From NCBI GenBank assembly GCA_012845835.1, contig JABAKD010000002.1:17917629-17981628 (forward strand): a stretch of 64,000 bases of DNA, in the 5' to 3' direction. The position numbers were made by a program, and so were the translations under genes. The notes beneath the pieces were generated by a model. The model saw only the letters and a program-made list of their open reading frames with translations. It was not told the DNA's origin and did no database searches. The stretch is from Undaria pinnatifida (Eukaryota > Sar > Phaeophyceae > Laminariales > Alariaceae). Position 1 is the stretch's first letter; each line of letters begins with the position of its first letter. Below are positions 1 through 57,879 of the stretch, one piece after another.

Positions 1-2399
1 TGGGTGGCATTTTTGGGATAAGTGATTTGTTGCTCTCCTTCAAGATGGGCGTGAATCTTAGTTACCGCAGGGTATCTGTCCACCATATGGTAACCTAATA
101 GTCTCCACGTCGCCTCTGCGGCTGAAATATACCTCGTTTTTCTATATTGTTCAACTTCTGAGGTAATGCCCTGTATCCTTGCTCGAATAAACGCGTCCCC
201 TTTGTGACAATATTTGAACACGTATTTAACGCATGATGTTGCGGTGACGACATCAACACAAATGTGGCAGTCAAACATCATGAGCAACATGGGGTTGTAC
301 GGCACCACCCACTCGTTTCCTATCCTAACACTTTTCCATTGGTTGTTTACTCTCATTCTTATGGTCGGGTTGTCACCGTTCTTCCTCCGAGTATATTCTG
401 CCCGTCCAGTTTTGTCGTTGACGGTTGCAACGCTTCTGAATGGTTGCGGAAAGTACTTGTTACAACACTTTTTGTTCGTGTGACGGTTTACTTGCATGCA
501 TGGAGCACTCATGTTTCCAACTGCCCCACACGGCTTGTGTATCATGTATTTGAGTACCTTTTCACGTAGTTTTCCTCCTGCTATGTTTTCGTCAGGCAGC
601 TGAGCCCACACCCATTTGTCCATTTCGTTTAGGGCATCAGGGCCTGCATTTTTGAAGGTCATGAGAATGTGAGCGTGAGGGTACCCCCTCTTTTGGAATT
701 CCGTCACCGCTAAATGGCTGTCGTAAGCGCCAAAAATTTTGCCAGACTTTAAAACCTTCATAATTTCTTTCATCTTCAATTTGAAAACACGACAACATAG
801 ATCAGGACGATCATAAGCACTTTGTCCTGGCAGCAAATTTTCTTGCACCTCTTTCCAATCCGCATTGAAAGTTACGGTGATGAACAAATGCGGTCTTCCT
901 CGCCTGTTCACGATGCATAGAGCGTCTTCTGTATCACTTTTACGCTTGGCAGGTGAGCCAGGGTGAGAAGCAGGAAGCAATTTACCGGGTTGTTCATGAG
1001 GTTGGGCGTCTTGAATGGACCGGTTGGAAGCAAGCCTATGCTGCATGTCACTATTTTCGACGAAATTCAAACGCTCTTCTTCCATTCTGCTCAAAGAATC
1101 ACAGACCCATTCCTGAGCGATTCGGCAGTTAATCTTAAATATCGGCTCCGAAAGAATACGCTGCCTACAGTAGAAGGGAAACGTTACGGCTTCGGTGTTT
1201 GACCGGTTCATTGTTTTAGATTTGAACGGCGGGTTCTCTTTGTAGTTACCCTTACTCCAACCTGCTTCTCCATGCAAAAACAGCAGGGGGAACTGTAGCG
1301 TTTCATATGCAGAGCTCCAAAGCGGCAGGAAGCGTGGTTTGTTATCTGGGCTGTTCCTTGGATAGGTGATAACTGCTCGCGGCGCATCATTTTGATTCCC
1401 TGAGGTAAACACTAAAGCTGCTATTTCATTTGCACTCGGATTCTCGCCCAACACTGGTCCATCATTAACTCTGCTAACTTCACTGAACTCTATAAAAGGC
1501 GCACTGGACTCTGACGCTGATGTGTTTAATATTGTGTCTACGGCAGACCTGTATTCTCGAGCCCACCTAATCTCGCTGTTCACGTGGGATCTTAGAGTGC
1601 CTGCAATCCGTGAATCTAAATGTTGTGAGGAGGTTGTCTGTGCGAATTCGGAATCGAATATGTAAAACCTGGCACTGTTGTTAACATTTTGGTTTTGATA
1701 CTTCTCCTGTAAGTCGAAAATTCTATGGTATGCTTTACCATGGAGAGTAAGCATTGTCGGTGGTTTTCCTTGAGTCCACGATCGGTTTTCTATGCCTCCT
1801 GCTCCCAAAGCTGTGAAACTAAATAACCCGTTATATGCCCTTTGTGATTCGCGAAAACGTGCGGTTTGGAAGAGCGATAACAATGTTTGTGGAATAGGTT
1901 TAAGCCGGTGAATGGCAGATCTCCCACGGTTACAACAGTTATAGGACCCAGACCGTTCCTCTTTCCATAGCACAGACCCACAGTGTTGGCACGTATAGTT
2001 ACTTTCATGTAGCAAGCACGGGTATTTTAGTTCGTACGCCTCAAGTGGATACTCAAAGTTGGTGGAATTAAAGGCTTGCACACCAAGTCTTTCTTCTGAA
2101 CCTTCCATGGAATTGGCAGCGGCAACGTCTCTAGGGTCGGGTCTTCGAGGGATGCGGTTTCTCATTCGATTAAAATGTTGAACAACGACGTCAGTCTCTG
2201 ATTCAGAATCGCTGTCCAGGTTGTTACTGCGGAGATCACGTTCCATGTTATTAGTGTTCTGCGTTCGAGTTTCGTTTTGAAGGGTACGTCGTGAGCGCCG
2301 CCCCGCTAAAATGCACGCGCGCCTACGCCTGCGCTCGCGGGCAATTTCAGCACGACGGGTATTTCGTTGCGAGCGAGTACATCGCTGATCGGTTGACAT
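1..2399 (-). CDS. Helitron Rep/helicase, N-terminal part (runs off left edge)
   Basis: An uninterrupted frame of 799 codons runs from the ATG at 2399 to the window edge; an in-frame TAA lies just upstream at 2406-2408. The Arg-rich N-terminus is followed by a zinc-binding pattern near residues 122-149 (CQHCG, then a WKEE block and a CC pair), as in eukaryotic Helitron transposases. The rolling-circle nuclease core is present: HAH at residues 575-577 (bases 669-677), and the tyrosine motif YVFKYCHKG with Tyr726 and Tyr730. The PIF1-like helicase half would lie left of the window. In Helitrons this protein nicks and rejoins one DNA strand during rolling-circle transposition. No stop or frameshift is visible, so the copy may be intact and recent. 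The family call rests on motif recognition and is strong; activity cannot be judged. Confidence 0.9.
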   Translation of the reverse strand, partial: MSTDQRCTRSQRNTRRAEIARERRRRRACILAGRRSRRTLQNETRTQNTNNMERDLRSNNLDSDSESETDVVVQHFNRMRNRIPRRPDPRDVAAANSMEGSEERLGVQAFNSTNFEYPLEAYELKYPCLLHESNYTCQHCGSVLWKEERSGSYNCCNRGRSAIHRLKPIPQTLLSLFQTARFRESQRAYNGLFSFTALGAGGIENRSWTQGKPPTMLTLHGKAYHRIFDLQEKYQNQNVNNSARFYIFDSEFAQTTSSQHLDSRIAGTLRSHVNSEIRWAREYRSAVDTILNTSASESSAPFIEFSEVSRVNDGPVLGENPSANEIAALVFTSGNQNDAPRAVITYPRNSPDNKPRFLPLWSSAYETLQFPLLFLHGEAGWSKGNYKENPPFKSKTMNRSNTEAVTFPFYCRQRILSEPIFKINCRIAQEWVCDSLSRMEEERLNFVENSDMQHRLASNRSIQDAQPHEQPGKLLPASHPGSPAKRKSDTEDALCIVNRRGRPHLFITVTFNADWKEVQENLLPGQSAYDRPDLCCRVFKLKMKEIMKVLKSGKIFGAYDSHLAVTEFQKRGYPHAHILMTFKNAGPDALNEMDKWVWAQLPDENIAGGKLREKVLKYMIHKPCGAVGNMSAPCMQVNRHTNKKCCNKYFPQPFRSVATVNDKTGRAEYTRRKNGDNPTIRMRVNNQWKSVRIGNEWVVPYNPMLLMMFDCHICVDVVTATSCVKYVFKYCHKGDAFIRARIQGITSEVEQYRKTRYISAAEATWRLLGYHMVDRYPAVTKIHAHLEGEQQITYPKNAT

Positions 2400-2476
2400 G
2401 GAAGGTTAAAGTTTCAAGTTCGCGTTCAGATAAAAGGTTTAGGGGAGCGCTTTGCCCGGTTGATCTTGAGCTCACC

Positions 2477-33285: not shown

Positions 33286-36200
33286 TTAGCAACGCCGCTT
33301 AAGCCCCCCCACGAGAAGAAGCGCTTCCTGAAGAGCGGCGGACAGAACCTCGGGGTGGTCTTCCACGCGCCCTGCTCCGTCGCCGGGCAGACGATCTAAC
33401 GCACGACCCACGACCTTGCGCGCGTACCCCCCATACGCGACACCGCCTACTCCGTCTCTGCCACCGTTCCATGGGTCCTGCTGCTGCTGCTGTCCCTGTG
33501 GTTTCTGCTGATGTTGCTGCTGCTGGTTCTCCTAGCGCAAGTAGGGACGGGATCACCATAACACGCAGAAGAAAAACGGGCAACGGGGGATAACGTGAGC
33601 GGTACTCGGTGGAGACCTCGTTGCGAATCTCGGGAAGGTCTGCACCCGAACATTCAAGACAAGAAAAACATTCAGTTACAGCTGGCTTGGACCTCGCGTG
33701 TATGATTGTGCAGGCACCCATTGCAACATCGACGCCTGGACAGGTTTACCGGCGGGCAGGAAGTTTCATTTTCCCGTGAAACAGCTAACGCGCGGCGCCG
33801 GCAAGGGTGGTGGCGACAACGGTGTGGCGGCGGCGGTGGTTGCGCCCTTCTGACACACGTATAAGCGGCACCGTTTATTCCCTTGAGAAGCGCACTCATG
33901 TGTTCGGGGACAGGCGACATGCACTTGTCTAGCATGATTTTGCACGATACGCCTGTGTAACATGTTGTAGCCGGTGAGTTTGAGAAGAAAAAAAGAACAC
34001 ATGCAGGAGCGATGGACGCTTGCTCGCCTGGTGATAGTTTCCGATGAGCCCGAGCTCGAGCAGCTTGGGAGCGGTGCGATCGTTCGTGCCCCCGGCCAGT
34101 TGGACGAAGTGTTGTCCATCTCCGAAGGGCACGGCTTTGGGCGATACGCATAGAGGTGCCACCAGGATTCCAACCAAGAACGACAGGTGAAGGGCAGAAG
34201 AAAAACAAAGAGATGAAAGGAAGGGGAATTCAGAAAAAACGGGGTGAAAGGAAGAAACACACAAAAATGAACAAAAACACGTGTGATACGTACAGAAATA
34301 TAAATAGAAAGAAGGCGCCGCCATGTGAACGTGTCCATGATTTTCAGTATCATGTTCATTGGAGAGAAAAGAAAGCACGGAAAAGAAAACCTGGTGATAG
34401 GGATATGTAACGAAAGTACCAACGTGAGAGTATTCGCGCACGGAAAGCGACAAAAAAACGCCTGCGAAGGTGAAGAAAGAAGTCAATTCGAATTTGGCCC
34501 AAGGAAGGACAAATGGACTAAACACAGCAATACGCGGCACGAGTAAGGCATGCATGCCACTCACAGTGCCTTGACACTTCATGTTGCTAGTAGAAAACGA
34601 GCGAGGATAACGCGGGAACCGGTTGTGCAAACATGACCCTGAACAAACACACGTTAATTCCAGAAGACGCAACTCTCTCCGCGCGGAGACACGCAACACC
34701 GGCACCGGCTTCTAAGCGCAAATATCACAACCGCGCTGGAACGTAAGCCCGGAAAAATGAAGCAAGCACCGCACACCATCTTGCGCACCTAAGCTGGTCC
34801 ACCTGCTCCCACCCACCACCCACTCACACTTCCCAAGAAAAACAGTCGAAACCGTGACAAACACACACGGAAACGCCAATTTTCAATGAAATGACCCTCG
34901 TTCGTCTACCTTCCGTGGCCAGGACCTTCTGCGCCAGGCGCACGCAAGCCGTAGTAGCACCCCTGCCCGTGTCGCCGCTCATCGGACGCCCATCCGTCTA
35001 TCAAACCGCGCAGGAAGTAGTCGTGAACAGGCGGAGGGGAGGGGGGGGGGGGGGGGGGGGGGGGGGGCATGTGGGGTTATGCCTTGTCTGGGTTGATCTG
35101 GCCTGCTGACAATGCAGGAAATCGGAGGGTAGGGAAGGAGTGCTTATGTAAGCGCCGTGGCAAAAAAGAGAGGGAGAGAGAGGGAGTGGAAGGGAGAGGG
35201 GGGGGGAGGAATGGAGGCAAGTATGGCGAGAAGGAGGGAGGGATGAAGGGGGGAAGGAGGGAGAGGGAGGGAGGGAGAGAGGGAGGGAGGGAGGGAGGGA
35301 GGGAGGGAGGGAGGGAGGGAGGGAGGGAGGGAGGGAGGGAGGGAGGGAGGGAGGGAAGGAGGGAGGGAGGGAGGGAGGGGGGTGGGGGGAGGGGCCGTCG
35401 ACGATAAGGAGCACGCCAGAGGGGCCACGAGTGCGCCAGAAGTGGTCGATGCACAAGTAGAAATCCTTGAACTAGAAGCAGTTGGTGCGCAAAATGGGCC
35501 CGTCACTGTATCGCATGCATATCGATAACCAACCATCGTCCGAAAAACACGTCGAATGGAAAATATCGACGCTCTCGGCTATCACACAAGGGCGCAGATA
35601 GCTGGCGAGTCTCCCTTACCCAATCGATGCGTTAGAAAGCTCTACTCAAGCAACATGTTGGAAATCTCTACCCGACCAATTCATTACAGAAAACACCGGC
35701 AGCCAGTCCTCCCTTTCGCAAAACCCTTCACCTGCCACACGTTGAGAGCGCGGGCCGGGGTCGCCTCGATCGTGTCATCGCCCGCCGCGCCTTGCAATTC
35801 CGATCTCCCGTCCCCCACGGCCCCCACCTCCGCCTCAACCGTCCCGCCTATCGGTATGTTCATGACAGCGTTCATGGCCGCGACGGTTAGGCCCGTATCG
35901 TCGCCCAGGTCCGGAAAGCTGACCGCTACTAGCTTGAGGGACCCAGCCGCGGCATCAGCGACCGAATTCTCCCAGAGGTCGCGGAAGTGCGCCAGGTCTC
36001 CCTGCCAGCGCGTGGAAACAGAGCATGTCCCCCGGCACCGTCGGAAACAGTTGCATCCGGCAGGAGCCAACGTCGTCCGTAGCAGTGGCGGCAGCATCGC
36101 CGGTGCCAGCGGCGGCGGCGGCGGCGGCGGCAGCGGTGACAGCAGCGGCGACAGCAGCGGCGACAGTGGAATGAGGTCCATGGCAAGGCGCACACTCTCT

Positions 36201-39200
36201 TTCTGTCGATTCGATCCAACGTCAGGGAGCCCAACTCCCTCTTAATACTGTCGGCCATCCAGATAGTCAATTTGTAACCAGAGATTCAGCGCCGGAAAGG
36301 GAGATCGGCTGCCGTCGGGAGTACAGAGCAACTCGGTGCCCATCGCCCAGACGGGTAACACGACGGTCTCCAGCTTCGAACGCGCCGCTTTCTCTGCGCG
36401 AACTATCGCAGCACCTCCCCAACACAAAATCGCGGGTAAGCATCTTTAGCTCTATACCACGCCCGGTTCTTAGGGTTATCACCTACCCGAGACCGGTTCT
36501 TATTGCGACCTCCGGAGACCGGTTAATATGGCGCCATCCAATTTCTTGCGATTAATTATCTGTCAGTCCCCCCCGCGCGCCCGCGATATACAACCCGGCC
36601 ACTGTACTTCGATTTTCCCGGGAGCTGAGGGTGGGGGAGGGAGGGGGGGGTCACCTTGGTGTGTATTTCAACGGCATCCACCTTCTCCAGCAACTCCCGA
36701 ATCACTTCCGGGGATCGCATGTACTTCTCGGACCTAATAATTCCCGGAGGACACACGGTGATGCACCTTCCGCACCCGTAGCATCTTGGCCCCAACACGC
36801 CTCCGCTGGAAATAAGAAAAAGTGAGCAACAAATTAAAAAGAGAGCACTATCTCTGAAAAGGTGTGGGGGGGGGGGTAAGGGAATAATGTCAAGGACCGA
36901 GATCGCCCACGCCCATGGTAAACTGGTCCTGTTGAGCAGCTTCCAGGGGAGTCGTTGCCTTGTATCTTCAAAAGAGGAACGCATACGTAAAAACGCACGG
37001 CCGGAGTATCACGCAGCTTGCAAAGATGCGTACCGACCATTTGATTGATCAAGCTCACAGCTGAAGTGTTTGAAATGATTTCAATAAAGAACATGAAAGC
37101 TCTGCTTGCGAGCATTTGGGGGCCGCCAAGAAACGAAAGGGTAAAGTAGAGCATGCATGCGAAGAGCTATGACCGACGTATGCATATCCACACATAGCAC
37201 GAGGGGTGGGGAGATGAACCGTGACCAATGCGGGCTGTTCGGCGTGCGTGCGTGTGTCGAAGAAATCCGCGTGCGCGGGTCGTGGCGGGGCGAAGGCGTG
37301 AAGGCAGCGGTACATACATCCGGGACACCGTGAACAACCTGCCTCCTGGGCTTTTGAACTCTTCACCGAAAACAAAATGCAAGCACAACATAAAAAAAAA
37401 GCAGGCGAGACCAAATTTTATCACCACGAAACGAAAGGAAACCGCGCGTTTTCAGTTGTTGTTTTTTTCTCTTTTTAAACAAAAACACGGGCTGTAAAGC
37501 AACAGCGGTGCCAGTCAACCCCCCCCCCCCCCCGCCGCCCCATGCTCGCCCCCGACCGTCACCTTTCAATACCAGCGGAGAAAAAAAACAAAAACCGAGC
37601 ATCACCTCCCAATAAAAACACTGAAAAAACCAAGTACCCAGCACTGGTGCCCAGGAATGCCGCGACCATGGTAGCCCTCTGCGCAGGCGGTGCGGGCGAG
37701 TCCGGAAACACCACAGCGTCGGCGGGGCAGACCATTTCGCACGGCCGTGGGCAATCTACGACGAGGGAAGAAGAAACGCAGACGGGAAGTGTGTGGGTCG
37801 ATAGGCGCTGGGGTTTAGCGCCCGGACAAGAGCGTAGGTTGTAGCATGTTGGTACGGAACCGACGGAATCGTACGTTCGTTGTTGTTATGTGTTTCCCCC
37901 CCCCCCATAACGTGGTCACCTAAACAACACTAAGTACACATACTTCGAAGTATCGCCTGAATAGGATGTGGTGATGCAACTCCGGATACAGATAGTTCGA
38001 TCGTCCTCTTCACAGACCTGCTTCTTCGTACAATATGCGAAAGGGCCCACAGCGGCACACACCGCCCAACCGTAGCAAGCAGAGGAACCTTTCCAGCACG
38101 AACGCCGGCAGAGGGAGCAAGCACCCTCTCGCCGGGTCGACATCAACGACTACGCCAACACCATCATGGTCGTCGACCACCACTGCCCGTCTCGCGCCCG
38201 TCTCGCACACGGTGTGTCCGCGCGTGTGTTGTTCACACTAAACCATCATGTCCACACCTCGACAGCCAGCGCACCCCGTGCCCCGTGCCGGTTCTCCGTC
38301 TTATCAACAGGGAGACAAGAAAGCGTCTTATCACATGCGCGCCTCTCTCACCGCTCGGGCAGAGGGAAGCATCGAACGCGGCCTTCCTAAAGTGAGGGTC
38401 TTCTTCGTCATCGTTCACGCTCATCATCAACCATGGTGCCCGCACCGGCGCCCCTATCGCTTCGCCCACGCCTTGAGCCGCTAGGACACCGTCCCTGCCA
38501 CGAAAGAGAAGACGCCAAGTGAGGCAAGGATATGAGCGGGGCCCACAAAAAGTGTACCACCCCACACCCTGCATGCCGCACGCCTACCAACCAGACGGAG
38601 ACATGGAAACAAATTTCAGGGTTCCCCTCGGTTGGAACATCGCGCTGGTGGGTATATACAACCGTCGTCAACTATGTGTGCGCTAGCGCAGGTCATAAAG
38701 ATCAAAACTACAAAAAAAACGGGGGTTTTCGGTCGGACGGTGTCGGATCTTCGGCCTCACCCAGCTCGGAAAAAGGGGCCCCTACATTGTAAGCGGCCGT
38801 ACAAATTAGCAATTCGCTTCGCTTGTGACAGATGGGGATGGGGATGACGGCGCGAACAGCGGCAAGCCATCTCCAGCAATAGGGGGGTCACGGGCGGCAC
38901 CTACGACGAACCCAGAATTGTTCGAACGAGAGGGCGTTGTGAGATGTCGTGAAATCGCACCCTTGCCACACCAGAAAGCGCGCTTTTTCGAGCAACGTAA
39001 CTCGCCGCACCATCACCCGCTGGAGGCGATCAGCATTAGCGACTATATACCACACGAGGCACGATGGAATGTAATGAAAAATGCACAAATTTACATATGC
39101 TTATGGAAGAGTAGAATGCACCTGGCCGCCTCGATGACAGCTTCCTCCGCCGCGACGTCGATGCAGTCCGCGCCCGCCAAGGTGTACACGAGCGCCAGAT

Positions 39201-41514
39201 TGCGAACCGCGGGAAGGTCCTACCCGAGCGGCGAGGCGTTCATTACACACGGTGGCGGTGGCGGCGGCGGTGGGGCGGGCATGGGCGTTGCTTGCGCATA
39301 CCGTATCTTATCTGGAATTGCCGATTGAGCGTCGGGACTTACAGTAGTAGGACGTACGAGTACACGATATTATGAATTCCGGTATATCAGAATGTAGGAC
39401 ATTCTACCACACGAGAAAGAGCTACAAGAAACAACAGCGTTATCGGAAGTTTAGGGCGTGCTACGGGTAGCGTACGAGTGCGAGTATTGGAGTACTGTTC
39501 CACTAGCGGTACTCTATTGCACTGCAAGGCGCTGATGCACAACGATTTGCTCGGAGGGCATCTGCCCGAATGAGTCTCTCGGCGTCCACCACTGCGGGGG
39601 TAGGTAGCGCCGAGCTCTGTGCCGAGCTAATGGTTACTTCTCGCCGTACTCTGCACCCCTTGCACGCCCTCCGTCGAACGAACGGCTCGGTGCATGCCTA
39701 TGATGATGATCATGGTGATGGTCTACAGCATGGTGGCTCTATTATGGTACTGCGCACAGACAACGCATACAACCGCGCCTATAATCGGCGATACAATACG
39801 CAAGGTGACGCACCCTCCAGGGCGAACTCTACGCGGTTTTTCTCGCTGACGTTGAGAGCGCAAAACGGTGAGCGATGCGCCTATTGGAAATATCTCGACG
39901 AGATGACCACCATATTCGTTGCCTGGGGCCCATTTATTTGCTTTTTTTTCTCCATCCCATTTATTATCCTCGCACTACTTACTCTCCTCGCGCTCTCTCC
40001 CGGTAGAAACTCTATTCCGGGGTCACATGGCGGGCCCTCCTCCCCCCTCCCCACGCCGGTACGTGCCTACATTTTTTTAATCGCGAGAATAATTCAGCAT
40101 TGTTTTCTTCCCTCGCCGACTCGCGTTTGGGGCCCATGTACAGCGACAAAACAAAGTATAAACGCGTTCATATCATGGTGCGAGCATGCAGCACACCGCA
40201 GCAGTGCAAGCTGTGCGCGTGCATGTCTTGCAGGTAGCACTTGGCATCGGGGTTTGACAGCAAGATCGTCATCGCCTGAACTCGTAAGCAGCCCCGGTTT
40301 GCTGCGTGTGGAGGATGCTGCAATCGTCAGTTTTATTCGCCAATATGTTTTCCTCTTGAAGCCCCAAAACCCCTTCATGATAGAACTTTCACTTTCACCG
40401 TCGTTTTGGGGGACAAACTACTTGGAAGTAGTGTGGGAAAAGGGTTTCGGTACAAGTAGTGTCTGGAGAAGAGCGTCTCGAACAATCCTCTCAGGGGGGT
40501 GTTATCTTGGTTTTAGTATTCGTGCGGCCATTTTGTGGTGACGTTTTTTTGGAGCGTTCTGAAAAGCTGACAGTCCCGAACGGAATACCAGTGTAAAGCT
40601 ACTACTATTAATATTAATACTTGTCATGTGGATACCATGTCCCCGAACCAACACGCCTAGGGAAAATGTCGAAACCCCTTCGACCTTCCAGACATCGTTT
40701 CTTGAAGGCTCGCTTGGGGAACATGGGAGATTTTTCATGTCTAGAACACGCCACGGAGCCTTCCCCTCCTCGTCCCGCTGACGGATCCTCCGCGGCGGAT
40801 ACACCGACTAGCGGATTCCCCACAGCAGTGGGACTTTGGAAGGCCCCACTGGATTGTTCCTTGTACCAGAGAGCTGAGGGAGCACTGACAACTGCTCGCC
40901 CACCGCTCTCTCTCACTTCCTTACACTGGTGCTTCTTGCACCTCTGGGACTTATTCTCATCCTCTCCTGTCTCTCCCTCTGTCAACGGCCTGCTGTATCA
41001 GCCCGTGTTGTCACACACTCCGCCGTCGTAGTTCAACAGTGAGAACACTTTGCTTACGCAGAGAGAAGTGGGATCACGACCGACCAACGGATTCGACTAC
41101 GAATCTTGGTAATATTAGACTAATAGTAATGTGTACGTGTCATACCTCAAACGATGCGCCGCAGATGAGCTTGAACCAGTCTCCTCTTCTGAGCGACTCC
41201 GCCGGAGACGAACATCGATACCACTCAGAGGGAGCGAAAGGGAGAACGGCGCTCTTCCATTCCTCGGTTAGAGCAGAGCTCACGACCACGTCGAGGACGG
41301 TGCTCGCACGTTTCCTACTGCTACGGCCTATACGTCGAGCTGGGCGAGTGCTCGTACTGGAATATAATGCTGGGTTGGTATCCGGCTGAAGCCTCAATCG
41401 CGACCCATCGCACGGTGGGTGCGGGACGAAAGCGAGGTAGAGGCCGGGGAGGTACGCAGCAGCTGTTGCTATGAAACAACACCACGGACGTGAGCGGGGG
41501 TATCTGACAAGCAT
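33286..41514 (-). CDS. LdpA-like 4Fe-4S protein with plastid presequence, nine exons
   Basis: Exons on minus: 41514-41146, 39219-39122, 38494-38352, 37755-37638, 36805-36655, 36001-35732, 34997-34910, 34134-34028, 33531-33286; phases agree; 529 residues. The LdpA core begins at SLRRGDWFKLICGAS (about 107-121) and continues through LALVYTLAGADCIDVAAEEA. Two cluster motifs follow: Cys201/205/209/213 (CxxxCxxxCxxxCP) and Cys251/254/257/261 (CYGCGRCITVCP). Later come VDAVEIHTK, DGRPMSGDTG, FVQLAGGTN and GGVAYGGYARK. In cyanobacteria LdpA senses redox state and adjusts the circadian period. The N-terminus has a hydrophobic signal peptide followed by Phe29, as in stramenopile plastid proteins; the frame is also open to an ATG at 41880. 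Intron 8 has a GC donor. A Gln-rich insert (451-465) is unusual. Plastid location is inferred. Confidence 0.85.
35210..35395. repeat. (GGGA)n tract, intron 6 of the LdpA homologue
   Basis: GGGA tetramer array on plus, preceded by a run of about 28 G at 35040-35067. On the coding (minus) strand this is a C/T-rich tract before the acceptor of exon 7. Confidence 0.95.
36994..37070 (-). repeat. Dispersed short repeat R2, copy E
   Basis: On the minus strand: CAGCTGTGAGCTTGATCAAT, then CATCTTTGCAAGCTGCGTGA and TACTCCGGCCG. Intron 4 of the LdpA homologue. Confidence 0.75.
39570..40541 (+). other. 323-codon open frame opposite intron 1 of the LdpA homologue
   Basis: An ATG-started frame with one strongly hydrophobic stretch (FICFFFSIPFIILALLTLLA, about 122-141). 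It lies entirely inside LdpA intron 1 on the other strand. The length is notable for this composition and the frame is not simple-sequence. I recognise no family and see no homology-like motif. It could be a nested gene, an old insertion or chance. Confidence 0.25.
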
Positions 41515-42014
41515 CTGCGTGTTTTTGTTCAATGCCGGACCCATCCTCCCTGTTGTCGGTGTGTGCGGTGTGTCTTCGTCAAACATGTACCCCGCAACCT
41601 GAATGAAAAATTCTGAAAAGTTATCTTTAGCAAACCCTTTGAAAAAAAACTGCTGAAATCCACCCATGCCGTCTCCCATAGAATCCACCTGCCCGTCAGT
41701 CTCGCTTGCTAGAGGCCAGAGCTGCATGTCCACTTTAGCCGTGTTGATGCATTTTGGGATAAGGCGCTTGGGAACACAGATTTTCTCAGGGAATGGTACT
41801 TGTTGTTTCGCACTAGGATAATCACTGCGCAGCCCAGCTGCTTCCAACCAGAGCACGAACACTCCACTCACAGCAGTCATACCTATACCCTAAACGATAC
41901 TAGAACGTTGCGTAGCTTTTGCCAAATCGCCATCTCCTGCTATCAACGAAGCTCTTCTTCTGGGATAATAGCACCTGGTGCAGCGTACAGCAGTAGCTCT
42001 CCAGTGAGCGCAGC
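41515..42014. promoter_or_regulatory. Divergent spacer between the LdpA homologue and the ANK-FHA-G-patch gene
   Basis: Only 500 bases (134 if LdpA starts at 41880) separate the two start codons, so the promoters must be shared or overlapping. No clear TATA box or repeat is seen. Confidence 0.55.
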
Positions 42015-44966
42015 ATGGAGGACGGAGAGATAAACGATGGCTTCCTTGGCGTGGAAGAGATGGAAAACAGGAAGGCTCTCGCTGACGCCCACGGAGAGGG
42101 GGGGGGCGGCATGTCCTGGGTGGAGGCTGTGATTCTCGGTGCCGGCCAGGTGACGGCCGTCGACGCAGCAGCTACGAAGGACGTCGACATCGAGCAGCAG
42201 CCAGAAGGCAGTCTCGCGGTGGGTGATTGTCTGTCTGCCTGCAGTGCAGCCAACATCGCAGTAGCATGTGATCACATGATATGGTACGAAACTGATTATT
42301 TAGAAAACGTTATATGTGCAACAGCAGCATGCCGGTATAGCAGTGCATCGGAGCTTGCCCGGAAGGCCGCTGCTGGTATAACCTGCAACCTGCAACACAA
42401 AGTTGAGTCAAGAGATACAGCAGTAGAACAAAAGCAGAAAATAATAGAACAAAACGAGAGCGGATAACGGCTTTTTCGGCCTGTTTTGAACAAAAAAACA
42501 ACCATAATTTCTGTGCAACATTAACCATAGCCTTGAACGGAGTAGTACGTCGCAACAGGCAGTACGAGCAGTATAACAAAAGAAAAATGAACGTTTTTCT
42601 GTGCTGTGCACCAGTATGCTGCTAACCGACGCGGTTACTGGTGTTGAAGTTTGGCATTGAGTTGCCCTTAGTAAATAAAATGTCAGTTTTTACAATATAA
42701 CGGGACGTTAGTATGTAGTAGGATGTTAAACCTGGTACCTTATACTTGGTATAATAGTAAGGAAGGAAGCTTGTCCTTAACCCTCTCTTCGTTCCCATCC
42801 CTATGTTTTTCCGTTTCCGTACCCGTACTCTTGTCCTTATCCGTATCCGTATCCTTATCCTTATCCTTATCCTTATCCTTATTCTTAGCGTTATCCTTAT
42901 CCTTATCCTTATCCTTAACCCTCTCTTCGTTATTACCCCTATATTTTATCCGTATCCGTACTCGTACTCTTTTCCTTGTCCTTATCCTTGTCCTTTTGCT
43001 TAGCGTTATCCTTGTCCTTATCCTCGTCCTTAACCCTCTCTTGGTTCTTATCCTTATATTTTGTCCTTGTCCTTGCCCTTGTCCTTGTCCTTAGCATTAT
43101 CCTTATCCGTATCCTTATATATGTCCTTGTCCTCATCCTTATCATTGTCATTGTCCTTACCCTTATCCTTATCCTTATCCTTATCCTTATCCGTATCCTT
43201 ATCTGTATGCTTGCCCTTATCCTCATCCGTGTCCTCATTCTTGTCTTTACCCTTTTCGTCCTCCTCATCCTTGCCCTTTCCCTCCTCCTCGTTCTCCTCC
43301 GTCTCTCCCCCTCCCCCCATCTCCCCCCCTCCCCTCTCCTCCCCGCACCCCCTCCCCCCCCAGGAAACCCACCGCGAGCCGCCCCCACCCGGGACCGCCG
43401 GCGACCTCCCCCCTCCATCTGCCGCCGTCACCGCCCGCCGCGAAGCCGCCCTAGTCCACCGCGTAACAGGCCTCCTCCGAGAGGGAGACGCGCCCGAGGC
43501 GCTGCTAACTTTACTAGCGGAGGCTGAGAACGACGGAGTCGATGTCGCGAGGTGGTTAGGGCTGGGACGATCGTCGATTGGAGGACGCACTCCCCTCATG
43601 GAGGCCGCGAAACAGGGGCGAACGGCTTGCTGCGCAGCGCTCGCTGACGCCGCTCGCGCCGCGGGGGGAGGAGGGGGGCTAAACGCTTGGAATGAGAGGG
43701 GGAGATATTCGGCGCTGCATTATGCTTGTTACGAAGGGGCTACCGGTGAGGGCGTTATTGTTGTTGTTGTTTTTTTTGTGGTGGGGTCGGTTGAATGCGG
43801 CAGTAGTTGCTGCCTGTCTGATGGCACTCGCCGCTAAAGATTGAGCTGCTCATGATGAGCTTTTTTACCCACCCAACCCCACCCAACCCCGCCCGCTACC
43901 ACCCTCCCTCCCTCCCTCCCTCCCGCTCTCTCTCGTCCCCCGCGCTTCACCCGCGTCACCTGTAGTCGCTGTCATCGTGACTTGTTTCACCTCACCCAAC
44001 CCCACCCCACCCCACCCGTCCCGACCCCGCCTGCTGATCCCCACCTACCATCGTCGTCGCCGTTGCGTTTGATTTGGTTGGATTGGATTTGGTCAACAGG
44101 AGCGGCGTTAGAGCTACTGGTCCGCGGGGCCGACCCCCGCCTCCGGAACCGAGAGGGGGAGACCGCGCTGCAGGCTGCTCTGGCGAACGGGCAGACGGAG
44201 TGCGCGGAGCTGGTGCGCGACTTTCTGCGTCGGCCGACCTTCGAGCCTGAGACGCAAAGCGGCACCGCTGACGTAGGAGAAGGGGGTAACACAGGAATGG
44301 AAACAGTAGAGGGAGGGAGAGGGGTGATGGGGGAAAGAGGAAGAGGCGGTGGATGTGGGGGGGAAGGAGGAACAGGGGAGGGGGGGAGGGGAGGAGGGGG
44401 AGGAGGAAAAGGAGGGGGGGGTGGGGGAGGGGGAGGGGAGGAGGGGGGTAGAGGAGGAGGAGCTGGAGTAGGAGGAGAAGAGGCAGCGGGAGGAGTAGGA
44501 AGAGGAAGCGTGCGGCTCGGCGCGGTCGGAGCGTCAGCTCCCGAAGTCTGCCGTGCTAACACGGTGTTCTGCCTCGGCCGAAAGCGCCGCCGCATCGGGG
44601 CCGGAGTCCGGCACGGCAGGGGGCTCGGAGTCGGCGTCGGCACAGCGGCGGCGGAGGTCGGGCTAGGCGCGCGGCGCGGCGCACGGCTCCACGCGACCAA
44701 CCCTTGCTCTGGAACGCCGATGGAGGCGTACGTGCTGTGGTCGATAGCCAACGGGGAAGACCCGTTTCACGGAGAAGGGGGGGGGCAGGATGAGGACGAT
44801 GATTCGGACGAAAATGAAGAGGGAGAGGATGGCGGTAAGGGCGCCTCTGCCGTCTGGCTGGATTATTATGTCCAGATGTACCACGAGAGGTGAGGCACGA
44901 GCGGGCTTGGGTGTCACCGCCGTTGAGAGGCGTCCCTATCCCTTTAGCTGCCTGCCTGCCTGTCTA

Positions 44967-48000: not shown

Positions 48001-49479
48001 TGACTCTGCTGGGGAAATTATCTTGGCAAGATATCGGAAATTGACCGATTATTTTCAGCGTACAACATTGCTTCGCCCCGATGATGCGTTTCCACTCCCC
48101 CGTTTTTTTGTGGTGTTTGCGAGAGCGAACGGGGCGATGTTTCTTGAACGAAGCGCTGAGAAGTCCCGGCGCCGCTAACCGCAAATCTCGCGCGCGGCGG
48201 CGCCGGCGGTGCACCTGGTATCACCTACAACGGGAGAGGGGGGGGCGAGCATGCGCAGCATCCGGCAGGGTGAATCGTGAAATTTGTTGGTGCTGGTGTT
48301 CGGGGTTTTCAAGTGCTTGCAAGCGATACCCCACCCTCGCCTGGTTGAAGAACGTTCGTTCATACACCGTGGAATTTATCAACATATCACACGCCGCATG
48401 CAACGTACCCGCACATGAATATTTTTTTGTTTTTACCCCCTGCCCATACCCTTACCCCCCCCCCCTCCTCCTCCCCCCCGACCCCTTATCTTCCCCCCCT
48501 CCTTCCCTGGAACCCAAGGACTCGTTCCGGTACCACCATCGTTGCACCGGCCTCATCAGGGCGATGGCCAGCGTCGATTGATCCTCGAACCGATCTTCGG
48601 ACCGTTCCTGGTGAGGGTGCTTCCGCTGTTCCGTCGGCAAGGTCGCCTGGAACGGTGGCGGCAGCAGCAGTCCCAGCATCGACGGCGGGGCAGCAGGCGC
48701 CCCTTGACGGCGCAGCGGCGGGATATCATGATTACGATGATGATGATCATCATGCCTCGGCGGTGGAAAACCGCGGTAACTTTGAGCATGTGTCAAAGGG
48801 AAGCATGCTCTTGAGGCGGATGGGCTGGACAGAGGGGCAGGGCTTGGGACGTCGCTCCGACGGGAAGCTTCAGCCGATGCAGGCGAGAGGGGCGTGTTTT
48901 TGTCTGTGTGTTGGTGTTGGTGGGGTATTGGATGGGTGTGGGGGGGGGATAGTGACGGTGGTGATAGACGTTGGTGGCTTTGTTGTTGTTGGCGGTGGTG
49001 GTGGTAGTGGTGGTGGTGGTGGTGGTGTTGGCGTTGGCGATGGTGTTGGTATTGTCTCTGTCGTTGCCGTCGTTGCTATTTTTGCTATCGCCGTAATCAT
49101 TACCAGTGTTGTCACGTTCATCCTTAATATTTATGTTTATTCTGTCATCGCAAGGTCGCTTCTTGCCCCCCCCCCCCCCCCCCCCCAGCCGCAAGCACTA
49201 ACCCCTGCCCCCCCTCGCTGTCCGACCACGCCTCAGGTGGAACGCCGAGGAGAACGCGCTGGGCTCGGGGCGGCGTCTGCGGCCGTCAGTAACAGCCCCT
49301 TCACCATAGGCACTGATGGCCGCATCACCAAGTGGGAGCAGATGCGCCGGAGATTCGCGGAGGTCCCGTCTGCGGGCCAGGGGTTTAGGGAGATGGGGCG
49401 GCGCGCCAGCGGGGCGGGAGTTAGGTGGCTAAAGGGGGCGGTGGAGGGGGGCGGGGGAGGAGAAGGGGCGACGAGCTGA
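42015..49479 (+). CDS. Ankyrin-FHA-G-patch protein (AGGF1-like), eight exons
   Basis: Exons: 42015-42149, 43364-43745, 44100-44889, 45312-45681, 45993-46805, 47401-47510, 48519-48882, 49237-49479; phases agree; 1068 residues. About three ankyrin repeats (118-205) contain GRTPLMEAAKQG, SALHYACYEG and GETALQAALANG. Gly-rich and acidic linkers and an Ala/Lys-rich helix follow. An FHA domain (about 520-595) is split by intron 4, with VIGR and then VSKSHLRI and DLGSKHG. HGDRISLGKTIFVLE follows, as in AGGF1. A G-patch (about 953-1000) reads SMLLRRMGWTEGQGLG and continues RGERAGLG after a GC-donor intron. FHA plus G-patch is the AGGF1 plan, tied to RNA and spliceosome work; FHA binds phosphothreonine. 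The N-terminal ankyrins are an addition and no OCRE repeat is seen. Exon 1 is the least certain part. Confidence 0.8.
42830..43300 (+). repeat. (CCTTAT/CCTTGT)n hexamer array in intron 1 of the ANK-FHA gene
   Basis: Degenerate tandem hexamers over about 470 bases, with a higher-order period: TTAGCGTTATCC and TTAACCCTCTCTTCG-type words recur three times or more. Frames through it are Leu/Ser or Lys/Asp repeats and not coding. Confidence 0.9.
44953..45200 (+). repeat. (CTGT)n tetramer array in intron 3 of the ANK-FHA gene
   Basis: Runs of TGTC units interrupted by GGCT units and T-rich variants. It lies between the GTGAGG donor at 44890 and the acceptor at 45311. Confidence 0.95.
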
Positions 49480-56100: not shown

Positions 56101-57879
56101 CAAAACGCGCCGCACGTCTGCAACTTCTCTCATCAAGGAGTCCCAGCCCTGTATCCGCAGCAGGACCGGCAGCACCACCACAGCAGGAGGTGAAGCAGCA
56201 GCAGCAGCAGCAGCAGATGCATTTTAAGAGAGTGACGATAGTAAGAGAAAGGGCGAGGGAGGGAGGGGGGGCGAAGGCGGAGGCGGCGGTGGGGGGGGGG
56301 GGGGAGGGGGAGTGGGCCGGGGGGGGAGGGGGAGGGGGGGCATTGAGTCTGGGGTTGTTTGGGGGAAGGGGGGGGGGAGGGGGGGGATGGTGATGATTAA
56401 ATCGTGCCGAAACAGAGTGTGTGCAATGGCGGAAGGTGTATGGATGTGTGTTGAATTGCATGCATGACGCTCCGCCGGCACGCGCGGAATAAAACACAAG
56501 AGCACCAGCGCCAGCACCAGCACCAGCACCAGCACCAGCACCAGCACCAGCACCACCAGCACCACCAACACCACCAACACCAACACCGCCGCCGCCGGTC
56601 CGGTACCACCATATATACCAACACCACCAACAAGAACAAGAACAAGAACTTCACATTCAACAACGTTTCCGTTTTGAGCTTCTTCATGTTCGTTTTCATG
56701 GTTGTTCTTGTGTCATCTCTTGCCTGGAGGTTGTCCGCGTTCCGCGGAAAACCGTCGATAAGGAACCTTGAGGCAGGGCCACACTTTTCCATCGCCGTCT
56801 TCAACAAGCCAAGGCTGATTGCCACTGGGACGATGCGGCCGTCACGGATGTATTCGTCGATGAGCTGGCCATTACTAGAACCGCTCTCACGCTCCTCCCG
56901 CAGCAGCTCCCCCGCGGACAGGTGAACGTAGCTGGTTCGTTTCGGCGTGTTTTTCGAGGCAACACGCAAAGCCCGTCGCAACAAAACGGGGACGGGTTGG
57001 GCGAAGGGGGGTGGCGGGAGGAGGGAGAAGAGGGGGTGCGCGCGCGTGCGGGGGGGGGGGGGGGGGGTAGCCCGGGTGTCCGTTTAACGTTTTTTTTCCC
57101 GGTACATGCTGTGTACGCGACGGAGGTGTCGGAGGTCGATGCCATGCGGCTGGCGTTATGGTTTCGCTTTCGCAACAACACAGCACCACCACACGATATA
57201 CGACACCACACCAAACCACACCACACCAAACCACACCACACCCATGCCACACCGGCAACACAAAAACAGTGCACGCACACGCCGGCCATGAGGTCTCTCA
57301 CCCATACTCCTTCGCAAGCCTCTCGCACTGCGTTCCTTTCCCCGAGCCCGGCCCTCCAAGCACAAAGATGACGGGCGACAGCCTTCCCTCCACAGCAGCA
57401 CCACCACCAACAACAGTAGGAGTGGCAGCAGCAGCACCGCCAACGTCAGCAGCAGCAGCACCACCCGAAAGCGCTACGGACGGCGCGTGGTAAGACCAAC
57501 CGCGCTTCCCAGTCCACCTGCCCGACCTCGGCGGCGACCCTGAGCCCCGCGGGGTCTCTGCTGCGGTGCCTCGAGGAGACGACAGCAGCGCTGCGGCAAT
57601 GATAGCTGTAGTTGTTGCACCCCGAGGAGAGCGGCGGAGCCAGGGAGAGACGGTGCGGCGTTCGCCACCGCATAATGATACGGCGGCAGCGGTGGCGGGA
57701 TCTAGCTTGTTGCCACCGCCACGGGGTTGCTGCTGCTGTAGTAGCGCTGTGCCCGAGAGGAAGCAGCAGGGAGAGCCGGTGTAGGGGGTGGTCCTGGCTG
57801 CTGCTATTGCTGCTGCTGCTCGCTGGGAAAGTTGCAGCAGGGAAAGGCCGGACCTGTGAGTTAGCGGCGAAGGCAGCAT
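53118..57879 (-). CDS. UMP/CMP-type kinase fused to a CaMKII-association-like domain, five exons
   Basis: Exons on minus: 57879-57302, 56931-56724, 56148-55972, 55050-54871, 53543-53118; phases agree; 522 residues. An Ala/Ser/Arg-rich leader of about 165 residues suggests an organelle presequence. The kinase has the P-loop GGPGSGKGT (175-183), [13 protein letters not shown] (from 194), FLIDGFPRN (249-257) and [11 protein letters not shown] (294-304). This is the UMP/CMP and short adenylate kinase pattern that transfers phosphate from ATP to a nucleoside monophosphate. Exons 4-5 add [12 protein letters not shown], then [23 protein letters not shown] and a short tail, the plan of the CaMKII-association/SnoaL-like fold. 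A Ser/Thr/Gly/Pro-rich stretch replaces the middle of that fold. Intron 2 has a GC donor (CAG|GCAAGA). Kinase confidence is high, second domain moderate. Confidence 0.85.
53614..53783. mobile_element. Second MITE, pogo/mariner-like
   Basis: A 170-base element bounded by imperfect inverted repeats: CAGTATAGGTCCCTCTATAG on the left and, on the right, the complement of CAATATGGTCCCTCTATAGT. An inner palindrome (CCCTCTATAGTGC / GCACTATAGAGGG) sits at the right end. Words resemble the MITE at 15783 (CTATATAGTGCGGG). No clear target duplication is seen. Intron 4 of the kinase gene. Confidence 0.7.
54230..54480. repeat. CCAAC-rich stretch in intron 4 of the kinase gene
   Basis: Many CCAAC, CAACCA and ACCAACC words, similar again at 54640-54740 and 54835-54860. 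Simple-sequence drift; no coding capacity. Confidence 0.7.
56280..56395. repeat. G-rich tract in intron 2 of the kinase gene
   Basis: Poly-G with GGA and GGGGA words on plus, hence a C-rich tract on the coding strand between the donor at 56723 and the acceptor at 56149. A CAGCAC repeat (56502-56587) lies in the same intron. Confidence 0.9.

What the first reader, a model, noticed from the sequence alone, without database searches (positions are those of the whole stretch)
33286..41514. Nuclear, apparently plastid-targeted LdpA homologue
Seen: nine exons joined in phase give a protein with two complete 4Fe-4S motifs and the blocks GDWFKLICGAS, LAGADCIDVAA, DGRPMSGD and GGYARK. Known: LdpA in cyanobacteria carries two Fe-S clusters and couples redox/light state to the Kai clock. 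Inference: an algal lineage that has no Kai clock kept this protein and sends it to the plastid, so it may serve a redox or light-signalling role unrelated to KaiABC. The signal-peptide-plus-Phe N-terminus supports import.
Basis: partly seen in the sequence, partly recalled or inferred. Interest (0 to 1): 0.75.

Follow-up and report, generated by a model that had tools for sequence, protein, structure and literature searches.

The report
Brown-alga relative of cyanobacterial LdpA
A brown alga's nuclear genome carries a well-preserved, probably chloroplast-targeted copy of a cyanobacterial iron-sulphur protein known for adjusting the bacterial clock, although searches found no core part of that clock in the alga, which suggests that the protein has an older and more general job.

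Summary
A nine-exon minus-strand gene (33286-41514) encodes a 511-aa LdpA: LdpA_C 6e-43, LdpA Fe-S domain 6e-16, all eight cluster cysteines. It gives the only LdpA_C matches in a 511-Mb genome with a brown-algal signature. In trees it falls with LdpA of photosynthetic-type cyanobacteria on a long branch: old plastid descent fits, contamination does not. The N-terminus resembles a stramenopile plastid presequence; start codon and localisation are untested. KaiB, KaiC-type ATPase and NdhN gave no match in this genome.

The 14 such loci read keep the cysteine motifs, and 4 of them the same downstream ATPase gene. A cyanobacterial LdpA is predicted to be a phosphate-binding-type TIM barrel with the Fe-S module after strand 3. 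Positions shared across the family cluster at the barrel's catalytic face; the alga keeps 39 of 40.

Best reading: a plastid Fe-S barrel protein, probably a redox-linked enzyme or ligand-gated sensor, whose ancestral task was not clock input. Family identity is secure; location and function are inference.

The parts
41146..41514 (-). Exon 1: putative signal plus transit peptide (about residues 1-105) and first barrel strand, ...GDWFKLICGASFE; donor gag|gtatga
39122..39219 (-). Exon 2: DLPAVRNLALVYTLAGADCIDVAAEEAVIEAA (barrel helix 1 and strand 2)
38352..38494 (-). Exon 3: strand 3 (APWLMMSVNDD) to the first cysteine of cluster motif 1 (DASLCPS)
37638..37755 (-). Exon 4: rest of cluster motif 1 (DCPRPCEMVCP) and a 17-residue insertion against the Nodularia protein
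36655..36805 (-). Exon 5: cluster motif 2 (CYGCGRCITVCP) and strand 4 (VDAVEIHTK)
35732..36001 (-). Exon 6: strand 5 (LKLVAVSFPD), a 34-residue insertion against the Nodularia protein, then ALNVWQ
   Evidence: the insertion could hide a further intron
34910..34997 (-). Exon 7: TDGRPMSGD block (strand 6) and helix
34028..34134 (-). Exon 8: VQLAGGTN block (strand 7, predicted phosphate-binding loop); GC donor cag|gcgagc
33286..33477 (-). Exon 9: GVAYGGYARK block (strand 8), C-terminal helices and TAA stop

Best explanation
The locus is an intact nuclear gene, with no second copy seen, for an LdpA-family protein in a brown alga. It descends from the cyanobacterial ancestor of plastids and its product is probably carried back into the plastid by a bipartite N-terminal presequence. 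Shown: family, gene structure, preservation of all eight cluster cysteines and of 39 of 40 positions shared by photosynthetic-type and photosystem-less LdpA-like proteins. Inferred mechanism: LdpA is a phosphate-binding-type (beta/alpha)8 barrel with two [4Fe-4S] clusters inserted in the loop after strand 3, on the face where such barrels bind substrate. The clusters would pass electrons to, or read the redox state of, a ligand held in a strictly conserved pocket (Lys of strand 1, Asp of strand 2, Glu/His of strand 4, Asp-Gly of strand 6, GGTN after strand 7, G-x3-R after strand 8). That activity predates both photosynthesis and the Kai clock; period control in Synechococcus elongatus would be a later use of it. 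In the alga it acts in the stroma without Kai and without NDH-1.
Against: The NCBI equivalog score for 'circadian clock protein LdpA' is not reached (357.5 against 450 bits). Start codon, presequence and expression are unproven; upstream in-frame ATGs exist. An AU test does not reject the alga on the branch toward the photosystem-less group (p 0.494), so its exact place is unresolved. Three genomes with Photo_RC go against a universal LdpA: G169 and G249 have no LdpA_C match and G227 only a weak one (3.8e-9). All 139 genomes with Photo_RC or strong LdpA_C also have a KaiB match, so within photosynthetic cyanobacteria this sample does not separate LdpA from the clock. The fold was predicted for a cyanobacterial relative with a narrow alignment (29 sequences, mean pLDDT 79, Fe-S region about 49-67), and Foldseek's own best rows, pyruvate kinases, have TM-scores near 0.4. 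Conserved loops in a barrel may be structural, and the sequences are not independent. No red-algal or other algal sequence could be compared.
Confidence: 0.6

Rival explanations
1. Plastid redox or light sensor: the two clusters read plastoquinone or stromal redox state and alter the stability of partner proteins, as proposed for LdpA with CikA and KaiA in Synechococcus elongatus, but with plastid partners.
For: Review passages state that LdpA senses plastoquinone redox state through its cluster and modulates CikA abundance (PMC13421787; PMC6378743). All cluster cysteines are kept in the alga.
Against: KaiB and KaiC-type ATPase give no match in the own genome; CikA was not searched. LdpA_C matches in 152 of 156 genomes without Photo_RC cannot all read photosynthetic plastoquinone. 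The conserved barrel face is more than a bare sensor needs.
Confidence: 0.3
2. Partner of the neighbouring SpoIIIAA-like ATPase (called Ycf45 here from recall): LdpA gives redox control to this ATPase, and both were kept in the alga.
For: Downstream on the same strand in 66 of 85 loci, also in 4 of 14 photosystem-less loci; ATPase identified as SpoIIIAA/AAA-like; two own-genome loci each match it with two collinear stretches.
Confidence: 0.2
3. Helper of NDH-1 (ndhN neighbour) or of photosystem assembly.
For: ndhN lies upstream of ldpA on the same strand in 10 of 85 loci (NdhN).
Against: NdhN gives no match in the own genome, and LdpA_C occurs in 152 of 156 genomes without Photo_RC.
Confidence: 0.06
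4. Cyanobacterial or other bacterial contamination of the assembly.
For: The relatives found are nearly all cyanobacterial, but no eukaryote collection was searchable.
Against: Eight introns, position inside a contig of over 17.9 Mb, 54% best identity.
Confidence: 0.01
5. A decaying relic without function.
For: Long branch (1.72); two insertions.
Against: No stop or frame break in nine exons; 39 of 40 shared positions kept.
Confidence: 0.03

Closest known systems
LdpA (light-dependent period A) of cyanobacteria; Pfam PF25160 + PF12617, NCBIfam NF045992
   Same: Whole domain order, two four-cysteine motifs, all diagnostic blocks; 54% best identity over 329 tree columns.
   Different: Nuclear, eight introns, about 105-residue N-terminal extension, insertions of 17 and 34 residues, below NCBI's equivalog cut-off, and no KaiB or KaiC-type match in the genome.
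   Same: 40 shared positions, cysteines of both Fe-S motifs, same downstream ATPase gene in 4 of 14 loci.
   Different: 27-32% identity to the alga; shorter; different cysteine spacing in the first motif.
DUF561 / Ycf23 (PF04481; the name Ycf23 for it is recalled)
   Same: Matches in 10 of 13 photosystem-less LdpA-like proteins; where the place was shown, near the N-terminus (L113) or in the C-terminal half (L111). Likely the same barrel.
   Different: No Fe-S insertion, by recall; the algal LdpA itself shows no DUF561 match at E 0.01. The own genome has a separate split DUF561 gene.
Phosphate-binding TIM barrels (indole-glycerol-phosphate synthase, TrpA, PdxJ, MfnB)
   Different: 8-14% identity in the named rows; no Fe-S module, by recall.

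Membership tests
LdpA family (PF25160 + PF12617) | C-terminal LdpA_C domain over its curated cut-off | tested here: met
   146.9 bits against 22.2
LdpA family (PF25160 + PF12617) | LdpA Fe-S domain with two four-cysteine motifs | tested here: met
   58.5 bits against 27.6; both motifs found by pattern
LdpA family (PF25160 + PF12617) | N-terminal KLICGAS / AGADCIDVAA blocks | tested here: met
   alignment
LdpA family (PF25160 + PF12617) | Two [4Fe-4S] clusters actually bound | not testable with these tools
   needs purified protein (EPR, Mossbauer)
Functional equivalog 'circadian clock protein LdpA' (NF045992) | Score over NCBI's equivalog cut-off (450 bits) | tested here: not met
   357.5 bits, E 7.5e-107: not filed as a clock equivalog
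Functional equivalog 'circadian clock protein LdpA' (NF045992) | A Kai clock to act on in the same organism | tested here: not met
   KaiB 0 matches, KaiC-type ATPase PF06745 0 matches of 12 candidates; a gene cut by introns could be missed; KaiA not searched
Plastid-targeted stramenopile protein | Signal peptide, Phe at the cleavage site, basic hydroxylated transit region | tested here: inconclusive
   features present from ATG 41514; no trained predictor, start unsure
DUF561 / Ycf23 | PF04481 match over cut-off | tested here: not met
   no match at E 0.01 for the algal protein; 10 of 13 photosystem-less LdpA-like proteins match at that level, L113 over the cut-off (22.5 against 21.6 bits)
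Phosphate-binding TIM barrel | (beta/alpha)8 barrel with phosphate loops at strands 7-8 | tested here: inconclusive

The most novel reading that the evidence does not exclude
LdpA is not at root a clock protein. It is an ancient Fe-S TIM-barrel enzyme, derived from a DUF561/Ycf23-type barrel, that was already in the common ancestor of photosynthetic and non-photosynthetic Cyanobacteriota, was recruited to tune the Kai clock in some cyanobacteria, and was carried through plastid endosymbiosis into brown algae, where it still does its original chemistry with no clock present.
Probability: 0.42. Interest if true: 0.75.

Novelty: new member of a known kind. Interest (0 to 1): 0.52.

Why it matters
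LdpA is described in print as a clock-input protein present only in Cyanobacteria in an analysis of 11,264 genomes (PMC5520375, passages), and how it controls CikA is listed as unresolved (PMC13421787, passages). A eukaryotic, probably plastid copy in a genome without KaiB or KaiC matches, together with LdpA_C in 145 of 148 sampled relatives without Photo_RC and KaiB matches, separates the protein's basic activity from the clock. It gives a concrete, testable pocket and a clock-free organism in which to look for it. On novelty: the listings (15 papers; none; 9; 4), and (10 of 10,954 shown, none with ldpA), showed no title or abstract opening on a eukaryotic LdpA; I looked at ldpA passages in four of these papers and not at the rest. 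The library holds open-licence PMC papers only, and protein databases such as UniProt could not be searched, so algal entries may already exist there.

Tried and rejected
Candidate exons seen around 40240 and 39840 in the long first intron were left out: cyanobacterial LdpA has no residues between the parts coded by exons 1 and 2. NDH-1 link: considered because ndhN is an upstream neighbour in 10 of 85 loci, weakened by no NdhN match in the own genome. Phage route: no LdpA relative in viral contigs (2 stretches matched a pattern, none confirmed). PDB by sequence: the 60 rows shown match at or around the Fe-S part only. Foldseek's 50 rows shown are pyruvate kinases with TM near 0.4; taken as general barrel similarity. 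Paper searches that led nowhere; 278 papers hold ycf45 or ldpA, ranked with both-term papers first, and the first 25 each hold one term only; 12 papers, all with ycf23, none with DUF561. PMC2765969 (brown-algal plastid genomes): the terms ldpA, ycf45, ycf23 and ycf27 do not occur in the text held.

Selections before counts: of 74 cyanobacterial loci, 72 passed length and motif (L050, L068 dropped), 33 remained after thinning at 88% identity and 29 of these went into A1. Loci were thinned to every sixth for the neighbourhood count (12 of 75), giving 85 loci with those of later calls, at most 83 genomes (L080/L081 and L099/L150 are pairs). L078-L081 were left out of the tree; no row fell under its length limit. 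L121, L122 and L150 were left out of the second tree. One search shows 25 of the 40 loci fetched. A2 holds 13 of the 14 photosystem-less proteins (L116 left out); A3 12 of 66 ATPases. The AU test went against a clean placing and is reported. An earlier count, 149 of 153, left out genomes with strong LdpA_C and so was partly circular; the counts given, 152 of 156 and 145 of 148, are the recount.
Full report
What is there. The window lies in a 511,146,479-base, 68-contig genome, on contig C26 at 17,917,629-17,981,628. On its minus strand, between 41514 and 33286, nine exons can be joined in one frame into a 511-residue protein without an internal stop. Seven introns are GT-AG and one is GC-AG. 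The protein has the LdpA Fe-S domain (5.8e-16) and the LdpA C-terminal domain (6.3e-43) of Pfam, and scores 7.5e-107 against NCBI's LdpA model, though at 357.5 bits it stays under that model's equivalog cut-off of 450. Both four-cysteine motifs are complete. An unguided scan of the whole genome with LdpA_C finds two exons of this gene and nothing else, so no second copy was seen.

Which organism. The genome holds very many EsV-1-7 cysteine motifs: 2161 candidates, of which 150 were scored and all 150 matched, with none in 14 control genomes. That this family is greatly expanded in brown algae is recalled, so 'brown alga' is an inference. KaiB and the KaiC-type ATPase family have no match in this genome; NdhN of NDH-1 has none either. 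These scans work exon by exon and could miss a much-split gene. KaiA and CikA were not searched.

Origin. A scan of genome contigs with a 228-residue typed query returned 75 loci; 74 carry cyanobacterial titles and one, a Myxococcales contig, matched weakly (9e-5) and its genome had no LdpA_C match. In a tree of 82 rows the algal protein falls with 67 photosynthetic-type rows and apart from 14 rows of a divergent group (100/99 support for the split), unresolved within them, on an end branch of 1.72; its best identity is 54% over 329 columns. In another alignment it is 39-51% identical to the 67 and 27-32% to the 14. With three rows left out, a test did not reject placing it on the branch toward the divergent group (p 0.494). 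This fits old plastid descent and not recent contamination, but no red-algal sequences were available.

Targeting. From the ATG at 41514 the protein starts MLVRYPRSRPWCCFIATAAAYLPGLYLAFVPHPP: a hydrophobic core (mean Kyte-Doolittle 1.94 over CCFIATAAAYL) and a Phe directly after LYLA; the 50 residues from that Phe hold 9 basic, 3 acidic and 11 Ser/Thr. By recalled rules this is what a stramenopile plastid presequence looks like. The frame stays open upstream to a stop at 41892 with six more ATGs, so the start is not settled.

A wider family than the clock. In 292 sampled genomes of the phylum around Calothrix PCC 7103 (G001), 286 have an LdpA_C match, in two score classes; 136 match Photo_RC, the photosystem reaction-centre family; 144 have a KaiB match, 141 over the cut-off. 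Of the 156 genomes without Photo_RC, 152 have LdpA_C; of the 148 with neither Photo_RC nor KaiB, 145 do (lists typed). Five of the 153 genomes without Photo_RC and without strong LdpA_C have KaiB, two of them strongly (G017, G100), and three genomes with strong LdpA_C and KaiB lack Photo_RC (G120, G163, G187). Against a universal LdpA, G169 and G249 have Photo_RC and no LdpA_C match, and G227 only a weak one. All 139 genomes with Photo_RC or strong LdpA_C have a KaiB match, so the separation from the clock rests on the photosystem-less genomes and the alga. KaiB-like domains also occur in SasA (recalled), so a KaiB match need not be a clock. Fourteen of their loci were read: all 14 proteins keep the second motif's four cysteines and three aligned cysteines of the first; 11 show two CxxCxxxC motifs by pattern, and three have a wider first motif. 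In print, LdpA was reported as only present in Cyanobacteria (PMC5520375, passages); two Melainabacteria genome papers mention RpaA, RpaB and NblS, and the term ldpA does not occur in their text (PMC3787301; PMC4040986; passages).

Gene order. In 66 of 85 loci an ATPase gene lies downstream of ldpA on the same strand (49 after a gap, 47 of these within 301 bases; 17 with overlapping ORF ends), including 4 of the 14 photosystem-less loci; ndhN lies upstream in 10 of 85. Some loci are short, so these are lower bounds. Pfam and NCBIfam call the ATPase SpoIIIAA/AAA-like; the name Ycf45 is my recall, and the word occurs in plastid-genome papers (listing) and in a list of cyanobacteria-derived genes of protists (PMC3087521, passages). 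In the own genome two loci on C26 match it with two collinear stretches each (E 3e-5 to 4e-4); a third, on C57, appeared with one query only (0.009).

Mechanism. The most likely reading is a ligand-binding or catalytic barrel whose two clusters sit by its mouth, giving a redox-linked enzyme or a redox switch gated by a small phosphorylated ligand. The clock effect known from Synechococcus elongatus (short period without LdpA, effect on CikA; review passages) would be one use of it. The original LdpA papers were not seen (one not held). In the alga it would act in the stroma. Shown: sequence, gene structure, conservation, distribution, gene order. Inferred: targeting, cluster binding, ligand, chemistry.

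Verdict. The finding is real and the family call right. As a member it is ordinary LdpA; what is unusual is its presence in a eukaryote without a detected Kai clock and what the wider family shows about its age.

Noticed in passing
G000:C2:13908477-13915546 (-): A separate split nuclear gene for DUF561/Ycf23 in the same genome (three matches over the cut-off, best E 1.6e-23): the likely barrel cousin of LdpA.
   Followed up: partly
G000:C26:5649434-5652071 (-) and C26:5899410-5903132 (+): Two loci about 250 kb apart matching the SpoIIIAA-like ATPase that neighbours ldpA in cyanobacteria, two collinear stretches each.
   Followed up: partly
window 3-2405 (-): Helitron-like helicase N-terminal domain (PF14214, 1.5e-38), a transposable element at the window edge.
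   Followed up: no
window 56400-57083 (-): Adenylate-kinase match in one open frame (PF00406, 6.4e-17).
   Followed up: no
window 48349-49476 (+): G-patch domain match (PF01585, 3.9e-8).
   Followed up: no
window 43859-44890 (+): Weak ankyrin-repeat match (PF13637, 9.9e-5).
   Followed up: no
window 35030-35400: Long poly-G and GGGA-type simple repeats inside the intron between exons 6 and 7 of the LdpA gene.
   Followed up: no
G017 and G100: Two genomes without Photo_RC and with low-scoring LdpA_C that have a strong KaiB match (4.2e-13, 7.1e-12), unlike nearly all of their group.
   Followed up: no
G120, G163, G187: Three genomes with strong LdpA_C and KaiB but no Photo_RC match: incomplete assemblies or cyanobacteria that lost photosystem II.
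   Followed up: no
G169 and G249: Two genomes with Photo_RC and KaiB but no LdpA_C match: gaps in the assembly or real losses that would make natural LdpA-free tests.
   Followed up: no
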